From an uncultured Granulosicoccaceae bacterium (lineage in GTDB: Bacteria > Pseudomonadota > Gammaproteobacteria > Granulosicoccales > Granulosicoccaceae), in the NCBI GenBank assembly GCA_937998875.1, contig CALLBO010000025.1, forward strand, positions 1-64,000: a stretch of DNA of 64,000 bases. The letters are read 5' to 3'. How positions within the stretch are numbered: the stretch's first letter is position 1; each line of letters begins with the position of its first letter. The notes under the pieces are model-generated. The model saw only the letters and a list, made by a program, of their open reading frames with translations. It did no database searches and was not told the origin of the DNA. Shown here one piece after another: positions 27,096-62,100 of the stretch. Position numbers and translations under genes: made by a program.

Positions 27096-28567
27096 TCACG
27101 TAGTCCTTTGTTCGATCATTTCCATACTCTTCTGTATCCACCCGAACACCTGCTCGCAGCGAGATTCGTCTATTAACCTGAAAAGGTTAGCCAACTTTTC
27201 CTCAGTTATATTGGGATTCAGTAATACCAGTCGTAACGCAAGCTTTCCCTGAACAGTGCAGCTAGAGACATGAGCATGGCCTGAGGCATTGATCTTTTCA
27301 AACAGAGACTGGCTAGCATGGTCACCGTCAGTACAGCGAAAGGTCACGATCGACAGTTGCGATTCAGAAACCACCTCGATCCCCGTCATATAGACAAGTC
27401 GATCTTTTGCCTGAAGAGTAAGATTCAGCACTGGGTCAAGAAGTTGCCTGAATACACTGACCCCATGAAAATGCAGTGGGACCCACATCTCGAGGCCACG
27501 GAACAGACGAGTAAGTTCGGGGCCCGGTAGACAAAAAGCAGGCAGCGTGTCACCTTTACTCACATCTCGCATATATCCGCCCCACTTCGAGTATTGTTGA
27601 TCCAGCCGGCTGCGATCTGCTACCAGCAACGCTCTAATCTCAAAAGGCATAAACAGACTTTTATGCGGATCAACCACAATGGAGTCAGCTTTCTCTATTC
27701 CTGCCATGAGTTTCTTGCCGCGCTCAGTTAAAGCGAAAAATCCTCCAAAGGCAGCGTCGATATGAAACCAGGCACCATATTCTGTTGCAAGCTGTGCACA
27801 TTGCTCTAGATCATCTACTGCCCTGTGTCTGTACTGCCTGCAGTAGCGACGATTAAAACAGGCTGCAGCCCGAGAGACTGGTCTTCAGCGATCGATTGCT
27901 CCAACTCCGCCATATCCATACTGTGTTGTTCGTTTAATCCAACAATGCGCATATGATTTGCAGGGATACCCGCCAATCTGCAACCTTTTATAACCGAATG
28001 ATGTGTATTCTCAGACACATAAACAGTTCCGCTCTGATTATTGTCTTCCAGGTGATCCCGGGCTGCAACGATAGCGGTATAGTTTGATAAGGTCGCACCG
28101 GAAAGCAACATACCCCCTCCCGCGGCACCTATACCGAACAACGACAACATCCAGTCAATCACACTTTTTTCCAATGCTACTGCTCCAGGGCAAATTGACC
28201 ATTGTCCGGTAAATCTGTTTAACAAAGAACCAAGGTAACGGGCTACGGCTGCTGTGTGCTGCCCGGATCCCGGGATATATGAAAGTTGTTTTCCAGAGGC
28301 TGTCTCAATACAAGATTCGCAAGCTCTCTCTACAGTTTCAAGTAACCTGGATAGATCAGAGTTAGATGCCCCCTGAGTGCGCTCGGGAGGTAGCTTTAGG
28401 AGATCTGTAATTTCGGTATCACTCAAAGCGGGATAATGTTCGGGGGAAATTTTTTGTTTCAATTCAAAATCTGCAACGAATTGATTAACCGCTAACTGTA
28501 GCTGCTCAAGCTGAACAGAACCTAATTTCAGTGAGTTAAATGCTAACCGTCGTAAACTCTTATCCAT
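27096..28567 (-). pseudogene. group II PLP-dependent decarboxylase, broken by a one-base frameshift
   Basis: Two adjacent minus-strand frames together make one aromatic/acidic amino-acid decarboxylase-like protein of about 490 aa. The first part runs from ATG 28567 (SD AGGGA) through the PLP region to VATAGSTDTGQ-stop. The second continues in another frame as VDDLEQCAQLATEYGAWFHI, then DAAFGG, then DPHKSLFMPF with the PLP-binding Lys. The break is at 27820-27823, where the message reads ACAGGGCAGTAG. One more G would restore TGAVDDLEQ, the usual family sequence. Either one G has been lost from a G-run or there is a sequencing error. All conserved residues are otherwise intact, so the lesion is young. 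Confidence 0.85.
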
Positions 28568-28756
28568 ATTTCTTTCCCTGTCTCTATAAGGTGAAGCCAA
28601 TCGTTATTGTAGAGAAACACCAATCCGAAAATAGAAACACTAAGGCCTGTTCCACTTAGCTGAAATATTCCTGATCAGCACGGATTGGTTAGGGATAAAG
28701 AATACAGATAAAGCGCTATGAATACTGGTACTAAGGTTTATGCCAGAAGGGTAAAA

Positions 28757-29107
28757 TTACCGTGAGTAATTTATTTCAAGCAGCTGCCTCAGCAATTCCA
28801 TCTCATCCTCAAGAGCATCGGCATTCTCCAGCTCTCGTTGTACAACTGTATGGCGCAATACTTCCGTAGCTGCCGTGAGAATCTCCTCATTCTGACACAA
28901 CGGTTTTAACAGAGGCCATCGAGAAACCGCAAATGTACGTAAAGCCCTATAGTTGCTATAGGCAGGTACTTTGTAGTCGTATGCGATGGTTAATACGCTC
29001 AAAAATTCATTCCATGCATCACCGGAAATATGCGCCGCATCTACAACATCCAAAAAGAGTTTTTTCCGTATCTCATTCCACTCTCCCTGCAGATTTGAAT
29101 CAGTCAT
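28757..29107 (-). CDS. small hypothetical protein coupled to the SF1 helicase
   Basis: The product is 116 aa from ATG 29107, which lies inside the last codons of the helicase gene (8-bp overlap), so it is almost certainly co-translated. It is predicted helical, with a Trp/Leu-rich first half (GEWNEIRKKLFLDVVDAAH, SRWPLLKPLC) and an acidic C-terminal helix (LENADALEDEMELLRQLLE). No known domain is recognised. The tight linkage suggests a partner, regulator or antitoxin-like role for the helicase. That is inference. Confidence 0.75.
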   Translation of the reverse strand: MTDSNLQGEWNEIRKKLFLDVVDAAHISGDAWNEFLSVLTIAYDYKVPAYSNYRALRTFAVSRWPLLKPLCQNEEILTAATEVLRHTVVQRELENADALEDEMELLRQLLEINYSR

Positions 29108-32015
29108 TTTCGCCATGGCCGGCTAAGGCAGGGTGTTGCAATATATTTTGAATGATTCGTTCCGGGTCTACTGCCCATTCACTGAACGATACCGGAATTA
29201 TACTAAGGCCTGTTCGCGACAACATGGCGTACGACTCGATAGTGAGTGGCTTTTTGTTGTTGGCTTGCGGGAATCCGATAAGATCGACACCGAGCTGACC
29301 GTTCTCTGTATTTAGCAGTATGTCTATTCTTATGTCACCAATCTTCACGCCGTGATCGACAGAATCAATGCGTCGGGCCCGGGTGATCTGCTCACACAGC
29401 GTGATAACATCATCGTTGCCAACTCCTGCACCACTAGCCATCACTCCTGTATTCTCTTTATGCTCTAACAACAACCATTGTATATATTGTCCAAAAAGCG
29501 AGTGCGGATCAAAGCGATCAGGATCACGCGACAAAAAAAGAACATGTTTTCGTCTAGCGCGTGTAATACTGACATTCATAACATCATTTCGTGACAAAAA
29601 AGCAATTGAGCCACCCGGTGAATGGTTATCTACTACTGAAGACATCAATACAATGTCTCGTTCCTCTCCCTGCAACTCATGAGCAGTACCCACCAACAGA
29701 CGACATCGATCACAGTCCACTTTACTGAACAATTTATTGATTTGTTTCTGCAGATGGTCGCATTGCGCACGATATGGGGACAGTACAGCGATCGACGCAG
29801 TATGTTCATCATTCGATTCGAGCAGATCTTTGAGATAAGCCACGACCACTTGCGCCTCCACAGGATTGTGACCATTTTTATGTTGGCGACCTTGTTTCAC
29901 CTGAATGCACTCAAGCGGCTCTTTGATATGCCGGTGCGTAACATGCGTGAGTAACTTGAGCTGGCTTTGATAAAATGTTCTATTACTAAACTCAATAATA
30001 GCCGGTGCGCTTCTAAAATGTTCATCCAGAAATTGACTGGCGTTTGAGGACTGCAAATTTGCATTCGCCCAATCTAAAAGGCTGCTTTGTCTGAAGCCGG
30101 GTAGTGTTACACGATTTTCCATCGAAGATGAATACCGTTGCATATACTGGTGCTCAGTGGCTATAGGCAGAAATGAAACGTGGCGTAATTGCTCGGTGTC
30201 TCCAAGAATTACAGCCCTCCTGGCTCTTTGTAATGCGGGTAGGCCACTTGCCATATCTGCCTGCGATGCTTCATCAACAATTACAAGATCAAATAGAGAA
30301 CATTCAAACGGTAGCAAATGACTCAGTTCTGATAAAGTTGTTACCCAGACAGGCATCGTAGCCAAAAGTTGCGGGTAATTTATCTTTTGCTGCAATTGCC
30401 GTTGCCTGAACTCCCTTGCAGTAAAACTGTCAGCAAGATCTGACAAGACACGGCGATCCTTTTTAAGCACCAGTCTGGTTCGGTATTGAATCTTTAGCTG
30501 TATCGCCTCGCGAACAAGGTCATCGCGCTCACGCAGCAGTTCTGCTCGCGCTGTAAGCAGGCGATTCAGATTGGTAAAGTTGCTGCTGGATAAAGGTGAT
30601 TGAATGATGGCACTCGTGAAACGCGCCCAAAGCAAATATGCCATTTGCATCGGCGATTTTTGGCCTTGGGCTGAAGCTGTTAATTGATCAAAATGACGCT
30701 CAAGCCAACCCATCTGTCGGTCTAATTGTGTGAGACGTGAACGGTTTTTGTTTATCGCTCTCTTTAGCGCTGTTAAAGGACTGTCTGACAGTAAACACTG
30801 TGCGACACGCGTGTGCTGCCTGGTGAAATTAACTGCACCGGATTGAACTGTTGACTGCAGCCGGCGCTTTAGCGTTTGCCGATCAGCTCGGCTACCACCA
30901 TTAACCATCGCGCCACCGAGCCAGACCTGTTCATCCAGAAACCGGATAATTACATCTACCGCTGCTGGATTTCGCGCGCAGATTAGAACAGTTCCTCCTG
31001 ACGCAACTGTGTTTGCCGCTATCATCGCGAGCGTATGAGTTTTACCGCAGCCAGGTGGACCAAAGACTACACTTAGATCATGTTGTTGCGAGGCTCTTAC
31101 TGCGCGCATCTGCGCCGGGGAAAGAGCACCAATAGTACGGTTGAATTTACTATGGTTGCCGATTGCGATGTTTTTCGTTCTTGTATGCCCACCTGATAAC
31201 TGCCTGACAGGTGGCGAGAATTGATCTGTCGCCTGCATTTGACCCAGCTCATGCAGGATACCCATGGACTGTTTAGACCGACGAGTGAGCAACACCACGG
31301 CACTGCAATATAAAATCAATGCGCCTTCTGTAGCATCTGCTGTATCCGCAGCCTCTACTGGTTCGTCCCTTTCTTTGTTGCGTACGGGGAGTTCTGTACA
31401 AAAGGGAAAGATTTCGAACCCGCTAAATTGCATTGCCGGAATGGCCGATACCAGATAGCTTTCAATCAAAGCAATGGCAGATTTATTCAGCGGACCAGTA
31501 TCTACTATCTTTTGCAGCTCAAGGCCAACCTCGGAAGCTTTGTCGCTATCTGCGATGACACGATCCAATAAAGCGCGATTGACCATTAAGCTTGCGTCGC
31601 TACCGTCACCTTCTACTGTTAAATCTGCGTCTTCCCAGGGCTCAAGCTCTGTCAGAAACAGGGGAGATATTTCAACCTTGCTAACATTCTCAACCGCGTG
31701 ATACTGAAGCGGAAAAACACCGTATACCAGTGATGTGCCGCGCAAATGTCGCTGCAACAGGTCATTGAGCTTCTTTAAGGATTCACGGTTTAAAATTGGT
31801 CGGGCTGAAAGGCGGCTCGCGACACCTTCAAGGTCACACTCAAACGTGGCCAGGATACGTCCGCCACCCAGTGTCACTGATCCAGTGTTAGAAAACTCCC
31901 ACGCAAAACACGCGTGCAGGTAACTGACAATCGGGATCGGGTGTTTAGAGCCCGGCAGTCCCTTGGTAGTAGTGGACCGGTCTTTAAGTAACATGCTCAG
32001 TTTTTCTACTACCAA
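29100..32015 (-). CDS. SF1 helicase (Upf1/Dna2-like) with degraded C-terminal nuclease-like domain
   Basis: The product is 971 aa. The first ~310 residues are an unassigned N-terminal region. Walker A is VFGPPGCGKTHTLAMIAAN near residue 318. About 250 residues later come motif II LVIVDEASQADMASGLPAL and motif III VILGDTEQLRHVSF. Motifs V/VI are GTAHELQGEERDIVLMSS and NVSITRARRKHVLFLSRD. Together these define the UvrD/Upf1-like SF1 helicases. Residues about 870-965 look like a DUF559/Vsr-type endonuclease fold (IGDIRIDILL, QLGVDLIGF, then a helix ending SFSEWAVDPERIIQNIL). The usual Glu-x-Asp-Gly is VDLIG, so the active site may be lost. Helicases of this build occur in defence and repair loci. 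It overlaps the small gene downstream. Confidence 0.85.
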   Translation of the reverse strand: MVVEKLSMLLKDRSTTTKGLPGSKHPIPIVSYLHACFAWEFSNTGSVTLGGGRILATFECDLEGVASRLSARPILNRESLKKLNDLLQRHLRGTSLVYGVFPLQYHAVENVSKVEISPLFLTELEPWEDADLTVEGDGSDASLMVNRALLDRVIADSDKASEVGLELQKIVDTGPLNKSAIALIESYLVSAIPAMQFSGFEIFPFCTELPVRNKERDEPVEAADTADATEGALILYCSAVVLLTRRSKQSMGILHELGQMQATDQFSPPVRQLSGGHTRTKNIAIGNHSKFNRTIGALSPAQMRAVRASQQHDLSVVFGPPGCGKTHTLAMIAANTVASGGTVLICARNPAAVDVIIRFLDEQVWLGGAMVNGGSRADRQTLKRRLQSTVQSGAVNFTRQHTRVAQCLLSDSPLTALKRAINKNRSRLTQLDRQMGWLERHFDQLTASAQGQKSPMQMAYLLWARFTSAIIQSPLSSSNFTNLNRLLTARAELLRERDDLVREAIQLKIQYRTRLVLKKDRRVLSDLADSFTAREFRQRQLQQKINYPQLLATMPVWVTTLSELSHLLPFECSLFDLVIVDEASQADMASGLPALQRARRAVILGDTEQLRHVSFLPIATEHQYMQRYSSSMENRVTLPGFRQSSLLDWANANLQSSNASQFLDEHFRSAPAIIEFSNRTFYQSQLKLLTHVTHRHIKEPLECIQVKQGRQHKNGHNPVEAQVVVAYLKDLLESNDEHTASIAVLSPYRAQCDHLQKQINKLFSKVDCDRCRLLVGTAHELQGEERDIVLMSSVVDNHSPGGSIAFLSRNDVMNVSITRARRKHVLFLSRDPDRFDPHSLFGQYIQWLLLEHKENTGVMASGAGVGNDDVITLCEQITRARRIDSVDHGVKIGDIRIDILLNTENGQLGVDLIGFPQANNKKPLTIESYAMLSRTGLSIIPVSFSEWAVDPERIIQNILQHPALAGHGEND

Positions 32016-44159: not shown

Positions 44160-47100
44160 ATGAAGAGCAAAGCAAACGGGACTAAAACTTCAAAGCGCCG
44201 CTCGGTGGTCGTCGAGCCTTTGGAGCCCCGCGTCTTATACTCTTCGGATATTGTGCCGGCATCAATTGCTGACGCTGAGCATACGACCGACATCCCTGAA
44301 ACTTCGTTTGTGCTGCCCTTCCTGCAGCCAGAAGCATCATCTGCTTCGAACAAAGAACCAGTGCTTACTGTGCGTGTGCTCCATGAAGAGCACACGCTTA
44401 ATAGAGAGCAACATCTCGATAAGATAAAAGACTCTGGCGAAACGGAAGTAGGAACTACTCAGACCGAGGCCGACGTTTCTGCCTTCGAAGATAACTCTAG
44501 TACTCAGCAAGTAAAAGAGATCATCTTTGTTGATGCCGGGGTACCGGACGCAGACATTTTAATAAACGACTTACTGGCTTCTCGCGATACGTCATCGGTG
44601 GTGGTCATTAAGCTGACTGCAGATATTGACGAAAGCGGGCTTGAGCAGGTTTCCGCCGTACTTCAAAACTACAACGATCTTGAATCACTCCACTTTGTGA
44701 CGCATGGCACCGACGGTTCTGTCCAACTGGGCGACATGTGGTTAACAACCGAGACGCTTGGCGACCACACCAATGAAGTTGCAAGCTGGAGTGAATCTCT
44801 CGCTGACGATGCAGATATACTTTTCTATGGCTGTGACCTTGCAAACACTGAAGAAGGACAGTCTTTCGTCGATTTGCTTAGCGCTCTGACACTCGCGGAT
44901 GTTGCGGCCAGTGATGACGCAACCGGACATAAGTCGTTAGGTGGCGACTGGGAGCTGGAATACACCGTTGGTAACGTCGAAACCGATATCGCGTTTTCCA
45001 TGCAAGTACAACAAAACTGGTCAGCGACGCTGCAAGCCGTCACCGTTACGACATTCAACGATGTTGTTAATGGTGATACTTCAAGTATCACAAACCTCAT
45101 CAGCAATGATGGGGGTGATGGAATCTCGCTTCGCGAAGCGATTATTGCAGCAAACAGTAATTCTATTGCCGATACGATTATCCTCTCTGAAGGCACTTAT
45201 GCATTAACACTGACTGGTGGAGATGCAACGACTGGTGATCTTGATATTTTAAACACAGTTGAGATTGTAGGTGCAGCAAACGGTTCAACGATTATCGACG
45301 GTTCGGCGTTGAACGATCGCATTTTCCACGTCAACACCAACAGCCTGACACTACGTAATCTGACCGTGACCGGGGGAGATACTGCGGACCCAGCCGGCGG
45401 TGGTGGAATTCTGGTTGGTGGTGGAAGCGCAGCAGTGTTTGATTCAGTTGTCGTTACAGGAAACAGCGCCACAACAGGTGGCGGGATCCGCGCGTCCAGC
45501 AGCATCGATGTCACCAATTCCACATTCAGCGCCAACACTGCAACTGTTGACGGTGCCGGTATCGCGTTAACCGGTGGCAGTTCAACTTTCGACAACGTAA
45601 CCATCTCTGGCAACAACGCGACCGCTGATGGTGGCGGTCTTTATGTATCTTCCAGTGCTGGCGGGCATACATTTACTAACATCACGATCTCGGGTAATAG
45701 TGCAAACAACGGCGGTGGAGTTGCTACTGACGGCGGTCCAGCCAACTTTAACCATGCAACTGTCACGGACAATACTGCAACCAACAACGGGGGCGGTATA
45801 TCCCGCTCTTCGGGTGTAGTAAATCTCGCATCGTCAATTATTGCCGATAACACTGCAACGTCTGCAACCGAGATATCCGGAACCATCACATCCAGTGGCT
45901 TTAATATCATCGGTGATGGCCCTGGTGATTCAACAGGAGGCACGGGGTACGACGCGAGCGATCTTCTCAATCAAACCGGGCTTTCATTGGGAGCACTGGC
46001 TGACAACGGTGGGCCCGTTCAGACCCATGAACTACAAACGGGTAGTGTCGGAATCGACGAGACTGGATCTCCTACACCAGATACTGACGGGCGAGGTTAT
46101 TACCGCGTCGACAGCAATGCCGATATAGGAGCTTACGAAAGTGGTGCTCTATCGAATCTGGAGCAGGATCTGGTTGCTCATTTCGAGTTCGAAGAAGGCA
46201 GCGGACTGGACGCAGTTGATTCTGCATTGGGAAACACCGGGAACATCATTAATGCTGGTGAATGGACGAATGACAGCGCTATTGGTAGTTTAGCTTTAGA
46301 CCTCTCTAACGACTCAGTCAATAATAATACGCACATCAACGTTCCTGACAATCCGCAGTATGACTTTGGGACTGGCGAGTTTACCGTTTCACTTTGGTAC
46401 AACATGGCCCTACCGAGCGAGACCGTTCGATTGTTCGGCAACCTCACCTCTTCAATCGGTGATAGCGGGTTTGCACTCCGCGCATTAACTACCGGTGAGT
46501 TTTCCTTTGAGCGTAACGATGGGCTTGGCTCGCAGTACGGGTCCGGTGCTGCAACCATGGATGGCAACTGGCATCAGCTAACCGTAGTCGTAGAATCCGA
46601 TGGTTCTGTCGTTTTTTACAACGACGGTGTGGACACGACTACTTCGTTTACGGCCAGCAATGTTAACGTGAATACGAGTAGTTCGCTGCTGATAGGCGCG
46701 ATCGATAACATTGCCGGAGACTTCGAAGGCAAGCTGGATGATGTGCGACTTTACTCAAGGGCACTCAATGCATCGGAAGCCAGCCAGCTGGCTGCAGGCG
46801 AATCGCAAACCACGAACAGCCCAGCTACCATTGACCTCGACGCCAACGATTCCAGCGGTGCAACCGGCACCGGGTACAACACAATATTTACAGTTGGTGG
46901 TTTAGCGGTTCCTGTTGCCGATTCAGACGCAGTCATTACCGATCCCGATACATTCAACCACTCGACAATGACCATTACTCTTGTCGGTTACAACCCAGGT
47001 GAAGATCTACTTATCGCAGATACCTCAGGGACTTCACTGACATTTAACTTCGATACAATTACCGGCGAAGCAACCCTGTTTGATTTTGGCAGCCCGACGC

Positions 47101-50100
47101 TTGCCGATTTTGAACAGGTGCTCAGCACAATCAGCTACCTGAATTCTTCATCCACACCGGAAATGACTGACAAGACGATTCAGTTTCACTTTGGTGGGGA
47201 TGTAGCTGAGACGACCGTGCAAATGGCAACGCCAGCGGTAGATCCGGCTCCGACTAATCTATCCAGTGGCATCGAACTGAACACGGATGGTGGTGATGAT
47301 GCGTACTTTATCGCTAGTGATGGGGGTGCGATTGTTGGCGGCCTCGAACAACTATCGTACGAAGTCACTTTCGCGACTACTGAAACTCAGAACATAACAC
47401 TCTTATCATACCGGTCTCCAACAGATACCGGCGCTAACGACGATGCGATTAGAATTCAAATACACACTGATGGAAAACTGAATGTTGCAATTAACGGAAT
47501 TGGTGTTAGCTACACGGCATTTGATTTTAATCAGTTAAGAGATGGAGAGATTCATAGTGTTGCGACAACGTGGGATAACTCAAGCGGACATTTTGCAGCC
47601 TACGTTGACGGAGTGCAGGTATTATCCGACACGGCACATGCAACCGGGGAGATTATACGAACTGGCGGTACACTGGTAATCGGACAGGAACAAGACTCTG
47701 TCTCAGGTGGATTTACTACAGCCGCTGCTACCAGTGCGACTTTTTACGACATCCGCGTGTGGGATGAAGTCCGCACGGAATCCGAAATTGCACTGAACCA
47801 TCAGCAGAAAATCGACCCTGCAAATCTTCCCGGTGGTCTGATCGCCAACTGGCAAATGGATGGCTTTGATACAGCCCATCAAATCGTTGATATCGTCGGT
47901 GGCAATAACCTGGGCATTGGACACGTTGGCCAAACACCGATCAACTCATGGACAAACCAGGTTGGCGGCGTAACCGCAACGGGCAATACACTTACCTATG
48001 TCGACAACGGAGCACCGGAAGAATGGGGTTCTCAAATCAACTCGGCCAATGTTTCAACATTGGGCTACACCGACGACTACACGATCCGATTCACGCTCGA
48101 CAATACAACCAACTACTCGTGGATAGTAGGATTGGGATCGACCGAAACGGGAACAAGCCTCACTGATCCAGAGTATGCGATTTTTGTGGACTATTTAGGC
48201 GATACTAATGATGTTGATATCAAACACAATGGGGTAACAGTTGGTAGGTACGATATCAACTTTGAACCCGGTGGTGAATTCGGATTCTACGTCAACGGTA
48301 CCACGCTTGCGTACCAGTACGACGGGGTGACGTTTGCAACCGACACGATCCCTGCGAGTACCGACTGGTATGTCGACACGGGGTTCTACGTCAGAACATC
48401 AGACTCAACATACAACAATCAAGACGACTATTCGTTATCAAACTTTCATATCATTTCCGGAAACAGCGCCGCTGCTGCGGGGTTCACCGAAAGCACTCCG
48501 GTTGATGATCTAAACATTGACGAACACACCAGTAACGGAACTACGGTTGGGTACGTCGTTCCGACGGACCCTGACTTAAGTAACGACATTATTGAGGATG
48601 GTCTTTTTACCCACGCTGGAGTGACAAGTTTAACCAACTACACAACGGGCGAAACAATTGGTGGCGCTGGTGGCAGCTGGCTTGTTACCAGCGGCAACGT
48701 TGACCTGGAAGGTGCCTGGGCAGGCACACCGCTTGGTGGAACAGCATTGGGTCTTGACGGATCCACTCCGGGAGAGATTACACAACAGAACATTCCAACT
48801 GTTGCCGGAACGCAGTATCAGGTTGTGTTCGCGCTGACAGGGCACTTTTCGGGACCACCAACAGCTGACCTTAACGTGAGCATTGACGGTGCCTCGGAAA
48901 ACTTCAACATAACAATGCCGGACAACTGGTCATCCACGAACTTACTGTGGGAGCATCGTTCTTTTAACTTTATTGCGGATTCGTCAACTGCCGACTTAAC
49001 CTTCAGTTCACTAAGCCCGTCAGGGAGCACAGGGCCAGTAATAGGTGATGTGCAGGTCATTGAGATCCCGCCTGCGATCAGCACGATTCTAAGTAGTGAC
49101 CCTGCACTTACCTACGACGCGGCTTCAGGCAAATTCTATAGACTGGTCGGTGCCGCAGAGTCCTGGACCGACGCCCAATCTATCGCCATTGGTGACCTCA
49201 TTAACGGTGTCACTGGTAACCTGGCAACTGTTCGCTCGGCAAGTGAAGGTTCAGCACTTCAACAACTCATGCAGGACAACGGTGTATCCGGGGCCTGGAT
49301 TGGTGCAAGCGACAACACCAATGAAGGTATATGGACCTGGCAGGATGGCAGTGGTGAAGTTTTTTACAATGGCGCAAGTGTACCAGGAATGTACGAAAAC
49401 TTCGGGGTTGCCGAACCGAGCGGTGGGGTCACTGAAAACTATGCCGAGTTGGTTGCCGTAGACGGCACTTTTAATGATCTTGGCAACACTGATACCCGCT
49501 CCTATATCATCGAATGGGACGCCAATGAAATCCTTTCCAGTTATACCTTTGATCTCGTGGATGATGCGAACGGTCGCTTTGCGATTGACACGAATACCGG
49601 AGAGATTACGGTTACAGCCTCACAGCTCAACCACGAAGCCAGTGACACGCACAACATAAGAATCGAAGTAACTGACGCCGCGGGCAACACCTATGACGAA
49701 TTGATGACCATTGTTGTCAATGACCTCAATGATTCACCTGTTATTACAGGGCAAGACCTGACTCTCGGCGCAGTGGCACAAACTGACACCAATCCACCTG
49801 GAATCACGGTAGCCGATATGCTGCTCAGCGGTGCAGCTGATGCGATAACAGATGAAGACGTCGATGCAGTCGAGGGTATCGCCGTTGTTGCAGCCAACAA
49901 CACAAACGGCTCCTGGCAATACTCGCTTGATGGTGGTTCGATTTGGAATGGCATGCCTGCGACATCGACGTCCAGTGCTCTGCTGCTGGATGAATCCGCA
50001 ATGATTCGTTTCGTACCTAACGCTACCTTCAGCGGTTCTGAAGCCATGGCATTTTTTGCCTGGGACCAAACGGATGGCCGGTCTAGCGGCGACTCCGGCA

Positions 50101-53100
50101 TAGACACCTTCCCCGAACGCACAAGCGACAGCGGTTCGATGAGTTCAACTGCAGATATTGCAACAATTGAAGTTAGCTCTGGCATAAACAACGCCCCGAG
50201 TTTTGGCACTGAAGGTTACGGCATCTTGTCACAGGGCGTAGGCGGCTATAACCAGAATGCAGACTCATGGGTTTTGTCGAATGGAAGCGTTCTGATCACT
50301 CCCTACGACACGAGTTTTAATTCAACAATCGCGAAACTGAATCCGGATGGATCACTGGACACGGGCTTTGCCAACGCCGGCTACTTTGACAGCGTTGGCA
50401 TTGGCTATATCGGGAGCATTGTTGAACAGCCGGATGGGAAGATTCTTGTCGGTGGCCAGGCGGGTGGCGATATCGCCGTTGCACGGTTTAATGCCAACGG
50501 CACCGTGGACACAGGCTTTGGGACGGCCGGTTTGGCAACGTATGACATTGGCGGGTCCGATAGAGTATTTGAGATTGCCCTTCAAACTGATGGAAAAATC
50601 GTAGCTGCAGGTCGTGGAGCCGGTGATTCAGTTATTCTGCGTCTGAATGTTGACGGCTCACTAGATACAACATTTGATACAGACGGTATCCGTACGTTTG
50701 CACTTGGTAGCTCAAACGAAGCATTCACTGACGTACAGATTCAAAGTGATGGCAACATCGTTCTGGTAAGTAACACGTCGTCAGCGATCATCCGCTTGTT
50801 GACTGACGGTAGCCTGGACTCTTCGTTCGACACTGACGGAACGTTGAATCTTGCCAACAACGTCAGCGCAGTGCACATACAGGCGGATGGAAAACTCGTT
50901 GTTACGGGAACCTCTGGTAGCGATCTTATGATCAGCCGATTCGATACGGATGGCAGCCCTGATACCACTTTCGGCTCTGGCGGTACAACAACGTGGTTAG
51001 GCTCAAGCTTGTTATCCGCAACAGGTATTGACCTCATTCAACAGTCAGACGGGATGTTTGTTGTGGCTGCTAACGTTGACAACAACGGACCTTCCTGGGC
51101 GGCTATTCGATTTGATAGCAATGGATTATTAGATACTTCGTTCGGAACAAGCGGTGCCTGGTTAATGCCTGGCAGTGACGACATTAGCGAAGTCAATTCT
51201 GTTTCGCTTTACAACGACGGCGGTACTGAAAAAATCATACTGAGTGGCTATAGCACGTTAGCAACTTTCGCAGACGCTACAATCGTGCGGTTAAATCCGG
51301 ACGGAACCCTCGACACCAGCATCCACTCTGGAAAGGTGGACGAAAGCCCAACCTTTGTTGAAGGCGGTAGCCCAGTTGTTTTGGATAGTGACGTATTTAT
51401 CTTCGACCCTGACCTGCTTGGTAACTCCGTTACCTACGACGGAACCAGCCTGACACTGGTTCGCAATGGTGGAACAAATGCAGAAGATGTATTCAGTGAA
51501 AGTGGACTGCTCGGCCCGCTGACTGAAGGCAGTGCAATCATATTCGACGGTGCCAACATAGGCACGGTGACAACGAACAATAGTGGAACTCTTCGTCTTG
51601 ATTTTTCGGGTGCTCTTTCCAACCCGGATAATATTTCCGGCGCCATGTCTTCGATTGCCTACAGCAACAGTAGCGATACTCCTCCGGCGAACGTCCAATT
51701 AGACTGGACATTCGATGACGGTAACACCGGTGCTCAGGGTGCTGGTGGTGCACTGCAGGCAACGGCGAGTTTGCTTGTCACTATTACACCTGTCAACGAT
51801 GCACCTGTGGTGATAGCGCCAGGTAGCGCGTTTAATTTCACCGAACAAGGCAGCTTGAACATTCACGGTGCCGGCCTGTTCAGCGTAGCCGATGCGGACG
51901 ATAACGGCGGCACCCTGACAGCGACGTTTTCAGTTGGTGAAGGACGTGTGCTTATCAATACGGGGGATTCGGGAGTCACCGTGCTTTCCGGCAACCGATT
52001 CACTTCGGGCAACAGCACAGATACTGTGACTTTCTCGGGAAACAAAGCTCAGCTGAATGCCCTGCTTTCCGGTTCTGGCACAGGCACGATTACCTACCTT
52101 CACAACCAAACCACCTCCAGCGATGTTCCGTCCGGTAGCACCACAATCACATTAACTGTGAACGATCGCGGTAATACCGGGATCGACCCTGGAGCTACGG
52201 CAGATGGAGTAAGTGAAGAAGGATCGGCTACGCAAACGATCAATATTACGTCCGTCAATGATGCTTCTGAATTCCTTGGTGCAGAGCTGATTACCAATGC
52301 CGATTTCTCAGCAGGGTTCACGGATTGGACCACGACCGGACAAACAACTGTGCTAGGCAACGAAGCCAGATTCGGCTCGGGTAACGTTGCTGGACCTCAC
52401 TCTTTGTCACAAACAGTTGCCACCAAAGCAGGAGAAACCTATCTGTTGGAGTTTGATCACCGGGATGATACCGGTTCGTGGAATCAGCAATTACAAGTAA
52501 CGGTTGACGGTGGTGGGAACCTGTTGCAAACAGGGCAGATTCTCTCAGACGTAGGCGACACAACTTCTGTCAAGTACCGCTTCACGTTTGTTGCGGACTC
52601 GGCAAACGCGACACTGACCTTTACAGATACTTCCGATGATCCCGGATCACAAAGTGCCGAATCCGGCGGTGTCGATGGCTACATTGGCAACATTTCTGTA
52701 CGCCAAACCAGCGGCGAACTAAACACAGTATCGTTCACCGAAGGTAGCACACCGGTGAGCCTCTACAACAACCTTGAGATCTTTGATGCAGAACTAACAG
52801 ACACGGATAACTTTAGCGGCGCTACGTTAACGTTGCAGAGAAGCGGCGGTGCTAACGTCGAAGACATCTTCAGTGCGACAGGCAATCTGAGCTTTGTCGG
52901 CACAACAACCGGAAATATAGAGCTGACCTCTGTCGGAGTCGTTGGCACCTACTCAAACACCGGAGGCATATTGACGCTCATGTTTACCACGAGCTCAACT
53001 ATTAACCTCCATGAAATCATTCAGTCAATCCAATATTCAAACAACAGCGACATACCTCCCGCCAACGTGCCAATTGACTGGACATTCGATGACGGTAACA

Positions 53101-56100
53101 CCGGTGCTCAGGGTGCTGGTGGTGCATTGCAGGCAACGGCGAGTTCGCTTGTCAGCATTACATCGGTCAACGATGCACCGCTTGTTGCTGCCAATACCGG
53201 TGCATCCACAACCATCGGAGGGACGGTTGTAATCACGGCAGCGTTGCTAAATGAAGCAGACCCGGACGATGACGGTGCCGAATTAACGTACGCGGTTACC
53301 AGTACGGCTCAAGGGCAGGTTGAATCATTAAGCAACCCGGGCGTTCCGGCATTGAGTTTCACACAAGCCGATATTGACGCCGGAGATATTGTGTTTGTTC
53401 ACGATGGGCTCTCGGGCCAGGCCGGATCATTTGATTTTGAACTGTCCGATGGTGGCGAAGATGGAGCCGGGGTAGAAGCGGGAACATTCTTCGTTTCGAT
53501 TGGTGGTGCTACCTCCGATAGTTACTCTACCGACGAAGATACGGTACTTAGCGTCAACGCAACTTCTGGCTTACTCACCAATGATGGTTCAGGTGGAACC
53601 GGCAATGTGGCAGGGAATGTCGTTGTTGGATTTGATGCCTCGCAGGATACCGGTGATGCAACCGAGTGGAATAGCAGTATCGGTTCGGTAGACCTATTGG
53701 CAGGTACGGGTGTTACGTTGACCAACAACCCAACGAATCCCCCGACCGGAATTACTACAGTGTTTGATCTGAACGGTTCTGGCGGACTCACGTCCCCTGC
53801 TCTGGATTCGTTTGCAGAGATTGATTCAACGCAATCAGCAACGCTGGAAACCTGGATTCAATTCGACTCATTGTCAGGGACACAGGTCATTTTTGACACC
53901 GGACAATCTGTCGATGGTGGTAGCCCGTCGACAGGTGGCATAGTGCTCGCGTTGGTTAATGGTAGTCTCCGCCTTACAGTAGCCGATAATGGTGGCAGTA
54001 CCATTGCGACTCAAACTGCACCCTTCACACCTAATACCTGGCATCATATTGCGCTGACAGTCGACATGGATGCGGCACCTCCATCTGTCGACGTTTGGAT
54101 AGACGGAAATCAATACTTTAGCCGTCAACTTGCAACGTTAACCAACTGGGGCGATGGCGCGTTCGGTCTGGGTACAAACAACGGCTCTACTCCTGGTAAC
54201 TACTCAGGTTCCGTCTCAGGCGAGATCGCTCATTTCCGAATTCACGATGAAGTATTGTCCTCTGCAGACATCACTTCAAATTTTGCCAACCCGGGGAGCA
54301 CTGGTGTCTCCACGCCGTATGTTGCAAGTACTAATGTTACGGGAATGCTCGGTAACGTGGTTGTATACACGGACGGCAGCTTCACTTACAACCCAAATGG
54401 TCAGTTCGAATATCTGGCACCCGGGCAGACAGCCACCGATACCTTCGTGTACACCTACGATGACGGGCTCGGCAATCAGGATACTGCGACTGTCACAATG
54501 ACGATTAACGGTGTCAACGATGCACCGATAATCGATCTCGATTCGAATAACAGCAGTGGTGGCACAGGCCTGTCATACAACGGCTCGTTCACCGAAAACG
54601 GTGGTCCGGTCAACATCACTGATATCGACGCGATCCTTACTGATGTTGATAACACGAACCTGAACAGCATTCAGGTGCAGATTGTCAATCGGCTCGACGG
54701 TAATGACGAACAACTGTGGGCAAACCCTGGGGTCACCGGGTTAACAGTTAACTACGACTTTGGCGCAGGCATTCTAACGATTTCCGGATCGGCCACAGTA
54801 GCTGAGTACGAACAGGTTCTACGTACCGCGACTTATGACAACTGGTCTGATAACCCTGACACGACACAGCGAACACTGAATGTAATCGCATCCGATTCAG
54901 CGTCCAATAGCCTGGTAGCGCAATCAAGAATTAATGTTACTTCTGTTAATGATGCACCGGTGTTCATAACCATACCTGATGCAAGTGGCCAAACCGTTGA
55001 TTCCAACGCACCGGGAACCACTAGTGCCACAACAGCAGACATAGACGGCGACGGTACGCCGGATCTGGTCACCACTGCTGCGAGTTCCGGTGAAATCATA
55101 TGGTACCAGGGGGACGGAGCTGGAAACTTTGGTACCGGCACTGTGGTTGCGTCAGCGTTGGTCGAACCGATGGATGTAGTTACGGCAGATCTTGATGGTG
55201 ACGGGGATATGGATATCGTCGCGGCCGACTACAACACAACCCAGGGCAATCTTGTCATCCTGACCAACGATGGCAGCGGCAACTTCTCAAAAACAACCCT
55301 TGAGACAGTATCGAACGGAATAGTACAAGTTGAAACGGGTGACATTGATGGCGACGGGGACATCGATATCGCAGCAAACTTCTGGTTTACCAGTGAAACC
55401 GTATGGTACGACAATATTGGTGGAAACAACTGGGTGAAGAATGTTGTTGGCACTGGCGGCGGTGGAACTTCGGTCGAGCTTGCCGATGTTAACAACGACG
55501 GCGAAATGGACATCATCTCGACCTACCGAAATACCAGTGAAGTAGTCTGGTATGAAAATGATGGAGGGGCTGCCAGCTTTACCGCCCACGCCAATACGGT
55601 ACCAGGTGCCTTTGACTCTGTTGCAGCAGATCTGGATGGCGATGGAGATGTCGACCTGGGCTACATCGGTTTGTCAGGAGCCCTCGGCTGGCTGGAAAAC
55701 GATGGAGCAGCAACTCCCGGCTTTACAGATAATCAGCTTGGAACAGATTTTGGCAAGCCCGCAAGAATATCTGCAAGCGATATCGATGGCGACGGTGATC
55801 AGGACTTACTGGTTGCATTCTCTGCCAGTATTGTCAGTCCCAGTCCTGCCTACGACGATCGGTTTGTTATCTTCACAAACGACGGCACTGGTAGTTTTGC
55901 CGAAGAGATATTTGATAACGGTACTAACCCCACATCAATCACAGCAACCGATCTGGACAATGATGGGGATTTGGAGATTCTGACGACCGACTCAGGAACC
56001 TCTGATGTCATTGTTCACGAGAACCTTGGCAATGGAGAATTTGCCCGAGCACAGACATTCGAAGATTTAGCAACGACTCTCAGCCCGATTGTGATTGATG

Positions 56101-59100
56101 ATGCAGATGCCGGAACCGCCCCCCTGCAAGTCCTGGTAACAGTTACCTCCGGCACTGTTGATTTCAGTTCGACAAGCGGGTTGACCTTTACCACCGGCAA
56201 TGGCACCGATGACAACCTGGCGATCTTTACCGGATCACTGGCAGACATCAACGCGGCTTTCAACATCCTCCAATTCAATCCGCTTGCCGATTTTAACGGC
56301 GAAGCATTGCTTCAGATTACTGTTGACGACCAGGGCAATACCGGCAACGGCGGTGCCATGATCGCACAGGAGACACTTTACATTGATGTCTTGCCTGTTA
56401 ACGATGCTCCCGATGGTACAGACAATACGATAGTCACGGCAGAAGACGGAGCTCACTCGTTCGGCCCGGGGACATTCGGATTAACCGACATTGAACCAGA
56501 CAGCTTCCAATCCGTGATCATTACATCAATACCCGGCAGTGGAACGTTAGCGCTTAGCGGGGTAGCGGTGATAGCCGGTCAGGAAATTACTGCAGCAGAA
56601 ATGTCCGGCTTACTGTACACCGCTGCCGCTGATGTAAATGGTAACGGGGTAGATAGTTTTACCTTCCAGGTACGTGACGATGGTGGTACCGATAACGGCG
56701 GATTCGACACCGACCAGACGCCGAACACAATGACTATCAGCATTGTCGCGGTTAACGATACACCGACTGCTACAGCACCTGCAACATTAACCTCGACCGA
56801 GCAGATAGCACTGGATCTTGATGGCGCCGGGTTCGCTGTTGGCGACATTGATAGTGGAACAGCAAATATAGAAGTGGTCCTGAATGTCACCGAAGGTGTC
56901 CTTTCAATCGGTATGGGCAACTCTGGTGTCAGTGTTTCTAACAGCGGTAGCTCAACAGCTACATTGACTGGCACTGTTGGGCAGATCAACAACTTGTTAA
57001 GCGGCTCAACGTCTGGTTCCGTTCAGTACCACAATACCCTGGACAACCCATCCGCTTCAGCAACGCTCACCATGACGGTGAATGATCTCGGTAACTCGGG
57101 TTCTGATCCTGGTTTAACCGGCGATGCGACTTCCGAAGAAGTTTCGACAACAACTACGATCAATATCACACCCGTCAATGATGCACCGGTTATTGATCTC
57201 GATGCGGACGACAGCACGACAACAGGAATTGAGTATCGGGGTACGTTTGTCGAGGGAACCGGGCCTGTCAATATTGTCGACAACGACTCCAGCATCATTG
57301 ACCCGGATAACACAACGTTATCTGCGTTAGTTGTAACTATAACCAACTTACTCGACGGCTCTAATGAGTCGCTGTCTGTGACAGTGCCTGATGGAAGCTG
57401 GGTGCAGAGTTACAACCCTGTCAATGGCAGACTGATGATTGCACCGGGAAGTGCCCCGCATGCCGACTGGGAAACGGTAATCGAGTCTATTCAATATAAC
57501 AATACGAGTGTATCGCCTGATTTAACCGAACGAGTGATCAACTTTACGGGCACCGATGGCACAGACGTAAACTCACCGGTTGCTGTATCACGCATTGCGA
57601 TAACAGCAAACCAGGCACCGGTGCTGTTGACCACCTCCCCCTTTGCTGTCAACCATACAGAAAACAACGGCCAGGTGGGTATTGACACACTGATCAGTAT
57701 CAGCGATGTAGATAGCACCATACTGACTTCGGCATCCGTTTCTATCACAACTAACTACACTCCTGGTCAGGACACTCTGGTGTTTACAAACCAGCCCGGA
57801 CTATCCGGCTCATTTAATACTGCAGCAGGTGTTTTGACAATAACCGGAAACGCCAGCGTTGCAGATTATCAGGCCGCTCTGCGCACAATCACGTTCGATA
57901 ATTCAAGTGAATCACCGAACACTGCGACCCGCCAGATTGAGTGGTCAGTTACCGATGCGAGCAACAACAGCAGCAACCTGTTGACTCGCGACCTGAATGT
58001 TACTGCCGTCAACGATGCACCGGTATTGGATCCAACGGGCACTATGTCGCTGACTACCATCTCAGAAAACGACACAAACCCAGGCGGCGACACCATTGAG
58101 TCACTAATTACCAGTGCCGGTGGAGATAGAATCACCGATGTAGACTCGGTACCCGTTGAGGGCATCGCACTCACCTACGTAGACACGGCCAATGGCAGTT
58201 GGCAATACAAAGCCAATGCAGGCAGTACATGGACAGCTGTAGCTCCCGTTGGGCCTTCCAATGCAGTACTACTTGCCACTGATAGTCTCATCCGGTTTAT
58301 TCCAAATACCAACTACTCAGGTACAGCGACATTTAGTTTTTATGCGTGGGATCAAACCAGTGGATCGGTTGGACAGCTGGTTGACCCAAATCCCGGGGGA
58401 GGAACGACTGCCTTTAGCAACGTCGCTGAAACTGGCACCATCACGGTTCTGAACGTAAACATGGCCCCCGAATCGGATACCTCTGCCGGGTTTGGAGTAG
58501 AAGATACCGTTGTCGCATTTTCAATTTCGGGCTCTGATCCGGACGGGAATGTTGACAGCTTTCGTATCATTAATATTCCTGCCAATGGAAGTCTGTACAC
58601 AGACGCAGGCCTCACCTCGCCAGTTACCGCTAATACAATCTTGAGTACTACCGGTACCAACACACTTGACCTGTGGTTCTCCCCAACCACCGATTGGCAC
58701 GGTGTCACTTCCTTTGACTTTACCGCGATTGACAATGAAGGGTTGGAAGATGCCACCGCTGGCACCAGAACATTAAGCATAGGATCGGTCAATGACAGAC
58801 CAGACAATCTCGTACCTGTTGCAAGAACTGCAGTGGAAGAAACTGCCACCGTATTCACTGGCATAACAATCAGCGACGTCGATGCCGCGAGCGGTAACTT
58901 AACAACTCAGTTACAAGTTACAAACGGAACATTAAATGTGTCGCCATCAGGTTCGGCAACGATAAGCGCAGGCACCAATGGCACTGAAAATGTGACAATA
59001 CAGGGTACAGTTGCCGACATCAACGCGACCCTGGCTGCACTTATTTACACAGGTAATACGAATGTGGCCGGAGCAGCGGCCGATACACTGACCGTTACCA

Positions 59101-62100
59101 CCAACGACCTGGGAAACACCGGTAGCGGTGGGCCACAATCGGCTGTTGACGTTATTCAGATTAACATCACAGCCGTTAATGACGCTCCGGTACTCTCCAC
59201 AATTGAAGCACTGCCCACTGCTTACACAGAAGGCAATGCACCGGTTATTGTGACTGGAAACCTGTCTCCGGGTGATGTTGACGACACTCATATCGAATCG
59301 GCTTCCATTGCTATCACCGGTAATTTCGCGGGTATTGAAGATGTACTCAGCTTTACCGATCAACTCGGCATATCTGGTATCTACGACTCTGCCACCGGAA
59401 TACTCTCGCTGACAGGTCCCGCAACGCTCACGGACTATCAAACAGCACTACAGACAATTGTCTATGAAAATACCAGTGACAATCCGTCTGTGCAGACACG
59501 TACAATCAGTTTCACGGTTAACGACGGCGATCTGGACAGTAACCTGCTAAGCCGGAACATCAATTTTACAGCAACCAATGATGCACCGGTTCTGGCAACT
59601 ATCGAAGCGCTGCCTGCTTCCTATACGGAAGGCAATGCGCCGGTTATTGTCACTGGAAACTTGTCTGCCAGTGATGTTGATGACACGCATATAGAGTCGG
59701 CGACTATCGCTATTACCGGCGGTTTCATCAATGGCGAAGATGTACTCGGATTCAACAATCAACTCGGTATATCAGGAATCTATGATGCATCGACTGGTGT
59801 TCTCTCGCTAAACGGATCTGCGACACTGATTGATTATCAGACTGCATTACAGACCATAGTCTATGAAAATACCAGTGATAATCCATCTGATCAGTCGCGT
59901 ACCGTGAGCTTCACGGTTAACGATGGAGATCTCAATAGTGGTACGTTGAGCCGTGATATCGATTTTACAGCAACCAATGATGCACCGGTTCTTTCCACTA
60001 TCGAAGCGCTGCCCGTGTATTTCACTGAAAACGGTCAAGCAATCAATGTGACTGAAAATATATCAGTTACTGATGTTGACAGCACTTTACTGCAGAGCGC
60101 CACTGTTTCCATCTCAGGTAACTTTGCGGCCACAGAAGACGTACTTGCTTTCACTGATACACCAGCCATTGCAGGTAGCTACGATGCCACCACTGGTATC
60201 TTGACGTTATCCGGTAACGCATCTTTAGCACAATATCAAAGCGCGCTGCAAAACGTGACCTATCAGAACATCAGCGACGACCCGTCCGATGCATCGCGTG
60301 CGATCGAATTCATTGTCAATGACGGCGCTCTCGATAGCACACCGCTCTACCGTAATGTGATTATCAGCCCGGAAAACGATGCTCCTGTGCTGTCTGCAAT
60401 TGAAACCACACCGATTCTATTCAACGAAAATAGTCTTGCCGTTGGCCTGACTTCTACCATCGAGTTAACTGATCTTGATGACACGACCATCGAGTCCGCT
60501 ACTATTGCAATAACTTCTGGTTACTCTCCAGGTGATGATTGGCTGACCTTCATAGATCAATCCGGCATTACCGGAAATTTCGACTCGACAAACGGTGTGT
60601 TGACACTGAGCGGAGCTTCCAGCCTACTGAATTATGAAAACGCGTTACGGACTATTGGCTTTGCGAACGGCAGCGACGATCCGAGCACCGTTAACCGGAT
60701 TATCGAATTCACCGTCAATGATTCGCTTGCCCAAAGCAATACGGTAACACGTGAGATTGTTGTCTCTGCTTCTAATGATGCACCGGTCATCACCAACCTT
60801 GAACCAACGGATCTGTCATTCGAAGAAAACGCCGTGGCATTGCAAGTTACATCAACACTTTCGGTCACAGATCCTGATGATAGTCTGCTCGAATCAGCTA
60901 CCGTGGCTATCTCCGATAATTATGTAGCGACCCGGGATTCACTGGTTTTTGCTGACCAACCCGGAATTACCGGCACTTTCGATTCTCTGACCGGTACGCT
61001 ACATCTCAGTGGTGTTGCGACTGTCGCAGACTATCAAAACGCTCTGCGATCTGTAGCATTCTTAAACGCCGGCGATGACCCGTCTACGCTGCCTCGCACC
61101 ATTGATTTTACCGTCAATGACGGCGACAACAGCAGTAATATCGGTTCTCGAATAATAAATGTACTCGCCGTTAACGATAACCCGGTTCTGCTTTCAATTG
61201 AGTCTGCTCCGCTGAATTTTATCGAAAATCAGGATCCGTTACCTGTTACTGACTCGCTCAGCGTTGTAGATACAGATAACGCCACACTTGAAGGCGCTAC
61301 CGTTTCACTGTCTCAGAACTTTGCACCCAATCAGGATGCGTTGTCTTTTACTCCAACTGGCAACATCACCGGATCATTTGATACAACTACCGGAAGCCTG
61401 ACACTGACCGGTACAGCATCAGTTAATGATTATCAGACAGTGCTTCGCTCTGTCACGTACCACAACAGCAGTGAAAACCCCTCTACTCTGCCGCGCTCTA
61501 TCGAGATCAGTGTGCGTGATCTAAGTGCTGAAAGTGTGGTGGTTTCACGCATAGTCAATGTCACAGGCGTGAATGACGCCCCGGCGGGCACTGACAAAGA
61601 TATCGAGCTTCTTGAAGATACCGACTATCCACTTACCGTGGCTGACTTCGGGTTTTCCGATCCGCTCGATAACCACAACTTTTCAGGGATACTGATAGAA
61701 GAACTCCCGGCACACGGTGAGCTTCTGCTGAATGGAGATGAGGTCGTCACCGGTCAGTTTGTTAGCGTTGATGACATTACTGCTGGCAATCTTATATTCT
61801 CACCGGAACCTGATGCCAATGGAATATCCTACGACAACCTGAATTTCAAAGTGATTGATGACGGCGGCGATCAGAATGACAGTATCGATGTGTCCATTTT
61901 CGCCAATCAGATCGATTTTGATGTTATCAATGTTAACGATCCCCCTGCGGGCTCTGACTCCACCGTCACCACTCAAGAAGATACTGTTCATGTATTCTCA
62001 CGTGCTGACTTCGGCTATAGCGATGTCAAAGATGGTAATCAGTTTGTTGCGATTACTGTCAGCACAATACCTGATAGCGGCTCTCTTACATTGGATAACA

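What the first reader, a model, noticed from the sequence alone, without database searches (positions are those of the whole stretch)
28757..32015. SF1 helicase with degraded nuclease tail, coupled to a small unknown protein
The 971-aa protein combines an unassigned N-terminal third, an Upf1/Dna2-like helicase core, and a DUF559/Vsr-like tail lacking the usual Glu-x-Asp-Gly. It overlaps an 8-bp-coupled 116-aa helical protein with no known family. Two-gene helicase-plus-small-protein units of this kind are typical of poorly described defence or repair systems.
Basis: partly seen in the sequence, partly recalled or inferred. Interest (0 to 1): 0.62.

Follow-up and report, generated by a model that had tools for sequence, protein, structure and literature searches.

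The report
Helicase operon with dedicated small partner
In a few marine Granulosicoccus-type bacteria, a DNA/RNA-unwinding enzyme related to known anti-phage proteins is made together with a small helical protein found nowhere else; it is a real but rare accessory gene pair, probably involved in defence, and its function is untested.

Summary
On the minus strand, a 971-aa SF1 (Upf1/IGHMBP2-like) helicase (29100-32015) overlaps a small all-helical gene (28757-29107 or 28757-29116). The host is a Granulosicoccaceae gammaproteobacterium. Exactly 4 of 48 genomes of its order carry the helicase, and all 4 carry the small gene directly downstream. The stop/start overlap is kept: ATGANTGA, 8 nt, in three and GTGA, 4 nt, in one. 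Both genes are under equal purifying selection (dN/dS 0.118 and 0.117). The small protein was found nowhere else among the 369 class-level and 398 phylum-level genomes, plasmids, phages or viral contigs sampled. More distant helicases (Shewanella, other gammas, Gastranaerophilales, Actinomycetota) lack it: 0 of 11 loci read. The N-terminal third contains a divergent DUF4011-like segment. The tail is an MTES_1575 nuclease domain whose E-x-D-G has become a conserved D-x-(I/V)-G, so it is altered rather than decaying. The architecture (DUF4011-like, SF1 helicase, MTES_1575) is that of the anti-phage proteins Hhe and ProA at about half length. The four pairs sit in four different places; no specific defence gene was found around them. 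A defence role is plausible from kinship and patchiness, but unproven. I rate it a new variant of a known kind.

The parts
29100..32015 (-). SF1 (Upf1/IGHMBP2-like) helicase gene, 971 aa, TTG start (homologues begin near residue 27-30, 'YLHACFA.E')
31551..31766 (-). DUF4011-like segment of the N-terminal third (residues ~84-155)
   Evidence: profile-profile match P=3.1e-4, score 34.4 against at most 14.4 for 100 column-permuted and 11.2 for reversed controls
29526..31130 (-). helicase core (residues 296-830) with all SF1 motifs
   Evidence: AAA_11/AAA_12; invariant columns
31038..31061 (-). Walker A / motif I GPPGCGKT (residues 319-326)
30261..30275 (-). Walker B / motif II DEASQ (residues 581-585)
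29136..29408 (-). MTES_1575-like (Vsr/DUF559 fold) tail, residues ~870-960
   Evidence: E=0.0047 here; relative L022 scores 41.9 bits over the 38.2 cut-off; dN/dS 0.07
29271..29288 (-). variant active-site motif VDLIGF in place of E-x-D-G; the first acidic residue D898 (29322-29324) is kept
   Evidence: alignment
29100..29107 (-). conserved 8-nt stop/start overlap (ATGACTGA), translational coupling inferred
   Evidence: ATGANTGA in three genomes, GTGA in the fourth
28757..29107 (-). small helical partner gene, 116 aa (ORF extends to 29116, 119 aa); conserved YRxLRxFAVxRWP helix

Best explanation
The two genes form one translationally coupled accessory operon. The large protein is a compact relative of the Hhe/ProA anti-phage helicases: a DUF4011-like N-terminal segment, an Upf1-type SF1 translocase core with all ATPase motifs intact, and an MTES_1575 (PD-(D/E)xK-like) tail whose catalytic Glu-x-Asp has been replaced by a conserved Asp-x-Ile/Val. 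The small acidic helical protein is a clade-specific dedicated subunit, probably bound to the helicase stoichiometrically through its conserved YRxLRxFAVxRWP helix. The most likely role is defence against phage or other mobile DNA. The helicase loads on and moves along an abnormal nucleic-acid end or structure; the tail supplies weak cleavage or only DNA binding; the small protein regulates or targets the complex. Shown: conserved pairing, overlap, purifying selection, domain make-up. Inferred: physical complex, substrate, defence role.
For: Pair present together 4/4 and never apart in 48 genomes of the order. Overlap conserved. Equal dN/dS 0.118/0.117. The four pair-helicases form one clade with 100/100 support, so a single gain of the small gene suffices. 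Helicase and tail of relatives align colinearly to anti-phage ProA (E=4.7e-54) and Hhe (1.2e-32), and the window helicase hits PADLOC MkoC, MkoA, PDC-S37 and Hhe. DUF4011-like N-terminus. Patchy: 4 of 48 in the order; 6 of 369 in a class sample; four different contexts, one next to a transposase and one near a VapBC-type pair.
Against: No specific defence gene recognised around any of the four pairs. No close homologue on plasmids or in viral contigs for the helicase, and none at all for the small protein on plasmids, phages or viral contigs. NCBIfam and PADLOC scores are far below the curated cut-offs for Hhe and ProA, and part of the match is generic helicase core. G035 and G057 diverge about as much at the pair (76-78% identity) as at the unrelated SppA gene (70%), so recent transfer is not shown between those two. 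No complex was modelled; the small-protein fold is low confidence.
Confidence: 0.45

Rival explanations
1. Accessory DNA-repair or nucleic-acid stress helicase (IGHMBP2/Dna2-like), with the small protein as a loading or fidelity factor; not defence.
For: Contexts are ordinary metabolic genes. IGHMBP2-family NCBIfam and PDB matches. A distant relative (G190) is followed at 19 bp by the stress gene TelA.
Against: Very patchy presence even among close relatives (4 of 48), which is unusual for repair housekeeping. Nearest architectural matches are anti-phage proteins.
Confidence: 0.25
2. The tail nuclease is inactive and the small protein has taken over or controls the effector step: sensor helicase plus small effector or inhibitor, as in Hachiman HamB/HamA.
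For: E-x-D-G lost in the tail. In Hachiman a helicase sensor restrains a partner effector (PMC12278908).
Against: Shewanella and other relatives carry the same D-x-(I/V)-G tail without any small gene, so the small protein is not needed to make up for the altered tail. It has no recognisable nuclease motif and is all-helical. Hachiman's helicase is SF2.
Confidence: 0.12
3. The small gene is a split-off domain that is fused to the C-terminus in other family members.
For: G036, G151, G190 and G290 carry a helical C-terminal extension of about 170-215 aa after the tail, the position of the small gene.
Against: Profile-profile comparison gives probability 0.3%. Lengths differ, and Shewanella members have neither.
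Confidence: 0.05
4. Chance neighbours: the small gene is a hitch-hiker with no functional link.
For: Only four instances, one clade. In G029 the small gene carries an in-frame TGA.
Against: 4/4 linkage in four different contexts, conserved overlap, equal constraint.
Confidence: 0.05

Closest known systems
Hhe (DUF4011-helicase-Vsr/MTES_1575 anti-phage protein; NF042953, PDLC02194) and ProA (NF058533)
   Same: Colinear match over helicase and tail in relatives; DUF4011-like segment N-terminal to the helicase.
   Different: About half the length (900-1,000 against about 1,800-1,900 aa); far below the curated cut-offs; tail lacks E-x-D-G; clade-specific small partner gene.
Mokosh MkoA/MkoC (Upf1-like defence helicases)
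   Same: Best PADLOC match by helicase core, E=3.8e-50.
   Different: Match confined to the helicase core. MkoC's PLD nuclease and MkoB's kinase (from general knowledge) are not seen; tail is MTES_1575-like.
IGHMBP2/Upf1/Sen1 helicases (TIGR00376)
   Same: SF1 core and motif set.
   Different: 128 bits against a cut-off of 349; different N-terminus; nuclease-fold tail.
Hachiman HamAB
   Same: Two-gene helicase plus partner organisation (analogy only; PMC12278908).
   Different: HamB is SF2; HamA is a nuclease; the small protein here is a short helical orphan.

Membership tests
Hhe / ProA | curated NCBIfam score cut-off (2000 / 1500 bits) | tested here: not met
   79 and 110 bits; relatives 77-193 bits
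Hhe / ProA | DUF4011 domain | tested here: inconclusive
   Pfam scan below threshold (one of nine N-termini at E=0.074), but profile-profile match 34.4 against control maximum 14.4
Hhe / ProA | SF1 helicase followed by Vsr/MTES_1575 domain | tested here: met
   colinear match through the tail in L016, L022 and G190; MTES_1575 above cut-off in L022, subthreshold elsewhere
MTES_1575 nuclease | E-x-D-G catalytic motif | tested here: not met
   VDLIG in the window; conserved D-x-(I/V)-G in gammas; canonical only in L019/L022
Mokosh | PLD nuclease (type II) or kinase partner (type I) | tested here: not met
   no PLD in the helicase; the only coupled neighbour is the orphan small protein; no kinase in the scanned neighbours' PADLOC hits
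SF1 Upf1-like helicase superfamily | motifs I, II, III, V, VI and AAA_11/AAA_12 | tested here: met
phage-defence system | reduces phage infection | not testable with these tools
   needs experiment
phage-defence system | located in defence islands | tested here: not met
   no specific defence gene around 4 pairs (one generic HTH hit)

The most novel reading that the evidence does not exclude
A previously undescribed two-component anti-phage or anti-plasmid system: a half-size DUF4011-like SF1 helicase with a reprogrammed (non-E-x-D-G) PD-(D/E)xK tail that works only with a new family of small helical adaptor proteins.
Probability: 0.3. Interest if true: 0.6.

Novelty: new variant of a known kind. 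Interest (0 to 1): 0.42.

Why it matters
It identifies a compact, mostly solitary branch of the Hhe/ProA-type helicases spread over Gammaproteobacteria, Melainabacteria and Actinomycetota, with a conserved change in the nuclease motif. In one clade the helicase has gained an obligate small partner of an unknown family. The pair is small enough to clone and test, and comparing it with the solitary Shewanella proteins would show directly what the partner adds.

Tried and rejected
(1) Small protein as the detached C-terminal extension of G036/G151/G190/G290: hhalign probability 0.3%. (2) Mobile-element boundaries in the window: only chance-level repeats. (3) Clean empty site via the SppA flank of G057: SppA homologues in five relatives have unrelated upstream genes, a synteny breakpoint, so no empty site shown; the PLP-decarboxylase flank of the window is absent from the relatives searched. 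(4) Foldseek with the N-terminal and small-protein models: nothing significant; models only 60 pLDDT. (5) Viral and plasmid relatives: only generic helicase matches, none for the small protein. (6) Three weak class-level hits to the small profile (E 0.003-0.009) discarded: stops inside or 29-35-residue fragments.

Full report
OBSERVATION. Both genes lie on the minus strand. The helicase ORF is 29100-32015 (971 aa, TTG), and the small ORF is 28757-29116 (119 aa; 116 aa from the second ATG). Pfam finds AAA_12 (E=5.7e-31) and AAA_11 (6.3e-23), and a weak MTES_1575 tail (E=0.0047, below cut-off). PDB sequence relatives are IGHMBP2/SMUBP-2, Sen1, Dna2 and Upf1. The small protein has no family in Pfam, PADLOC, NCBIfam or the PDB and is modelled as six helices at low confidence (pLDDT 61).

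DISTRIBUTION. The window is part of a 5.2 Mb draft genome. Its relatives carrying the pair are titled Granulosicoccus and Granulosicoccaceae. Of 57 relatives searched, only G000, G035 and G029 have a helicase at about 40% identity, and the same three have the small protein (42-45% in the two relatives). Extending to all 48 held genomes of the order adds G057, a 7.8 Mb single-contig genome, which has both genes adjacent. The other newly added genomes have neither. The small protein is absent from the other 368 genomes of a class-level sample (three sub-threshold fragments ignored), the other 397 of a phylum-level sample, plasmids, phages and IMG/VR contigs.

COUPLING AND SELECTION. The overlap is ATGACTGA, ATGAATGA and ATGAGTGA (8 nt) in G000, G035 and G057, and GTGA (4 nt) in G029. 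The conserved position supports the second ATG (29107) as the real start. Between G035 and G057, dN/dS is 0.118 for the helicase, 0.117 for the small gene and 0.07 for the tail; nearly all other comparisons are saturated at synonymous sites. A maximum-likelihood tree makes the four pair-helicases one clade (100/100), consistent with one gain of the small gene. In G029 the small gene has one in-frame TGA, either a recent nonsense change or a draft-assembly error.

WIDER FAMILY. A genome-collection scan and class sampling gave distant helicases (29-38% identity) in four Shewanella species, other gammaproteobacteria (G036, G151, G190, G290, G518), Gastranaerophilales and Actinomycetota. None of the loci read has a small-protein homologue; the downstream gene is convergent, unrelated or absent. 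G190 is followed at 19 bp by TelA. So the two-gene unit is a feature of one clade, not of the helicase family.

DOMAIN MAKE-UP. Aligning 15 family members shows that the tail motif is E-x-D-G in Gastranaerophilales, where MTES_1575 scores above its cut-off (41.9 against 38.2). In Granulosicoccaceae, Shewanella and the other gammas it is (I/V/L)-D-(L/F)-(I/V)-G-(F/Y); G035 and G057 depart from it with IDSMD and IDFMD. The preceding Asp (D898) is conserved. This is a conserved substitution, not random decay; whether it is catalytic cannot be told. The N-terminal third gave no Pfam hit alone, but one of nine N-termini hit DUF4011 at E=0.074. I therefore collected DUF4011 domains from relatives and compared profiles. 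The family N-terminus aligns at residues 84-155 with score 34.4 (P=3.1e-4), against a maximum of 14.4 for 100 column-permuted controls and 11.2 for the reversed profile. The Granulosicoccaceae N-termini alone are not significant (P=0.09), so the assignment rests on the wider family. Helicase and tail together align colinearly to anti-phage ProA (E=4.7e-54 for Shewanella) and Hhe (1.2e-32). The protein is thus a half-length relative of those systems, far below their membership cut-offs.

CONTEXT. The four pairs lie in four different places: beside a frame-broken PLP decarboxylase and a sulfatase (window); between a glyoxalase and a dioxygenase near a PIN-domain toxin pair (G035); after a transposase (G029); and between what look like TamA and SppA genes (G057; names by my reading of the sequence). 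Of 45 proteins scanned, 44 of them neighbours, only the helicase and one generic HTH protein hit PADLOC at E<1e-10. I could not show an empty site.

INTERPRETATION. Shown: a conserved, translationally overlapping, purifying-selected pair with an intact SF1 motor. Inferred: the small protein binds the helicase; the complex processes nucleic acid; the role is defence. Kinship and patchiness favour defence; lack of islands and of mobile-element copies weakens it. I put defence-type function at about 0.45, repair/stress at 0.25, and the rest on variants. The small protein cannot be explained as compensating for the altered tail, because Shewanella homologues share the altered tail and lack it. A sensor-effector mechanism of the Hachiman kind (PMC12278908) is an analogy only.

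Noticed in passing
window 27096-28600 (-): PLP-dependent decarboxylase split into two ORFs (27815-28600 and 27096-27707) matching successive parts of Pyridoxal_deC: a frameshift or nonsense break, or an assembly error.
   Followed up: partly
window 44160-63650 (+): A single 6,496-aa ORF, a giant repetitive cadherin-like/adhesin-type protein, fills the right third of the window.
   Followed up: no
L040 7462-11967 (G190): Helicase relative with a ~215-aa helical C-terminal extension, followed at 19 bp by a TelA (toxic anion resistance) gene; the extension also occurs in G036, G151 and G290 and has no Pfam family.
   Followed up: partly
L013 2163-11777 (G041): A defence cluster: GmrSD-type endonuclease, MkoC-like Upf1 helicase and an AbiP2 reverse transcriptase within about 10 kb.
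   Followed up: partly
G000:C72:7721-8125 and most Granulosicoccaceae: A ~700-aa DUF4011 protein is present in nearly all members of the family, apparently core; in P. aeruginosa a DUF4011 core gene flanks defence hotspot cDHS1 (PMC10250203).
   Followed up: no
L011 4076-4078 (G029): In-frame TGA inside the small partner gene, where homologues keep reading to conserved residues.
   Followed up: partly
L010 892-1736 (G035): PIN-domain toxin with a probable antitoxin gene lies about 1.8 kb upstream of the pair.
   Followed up: no
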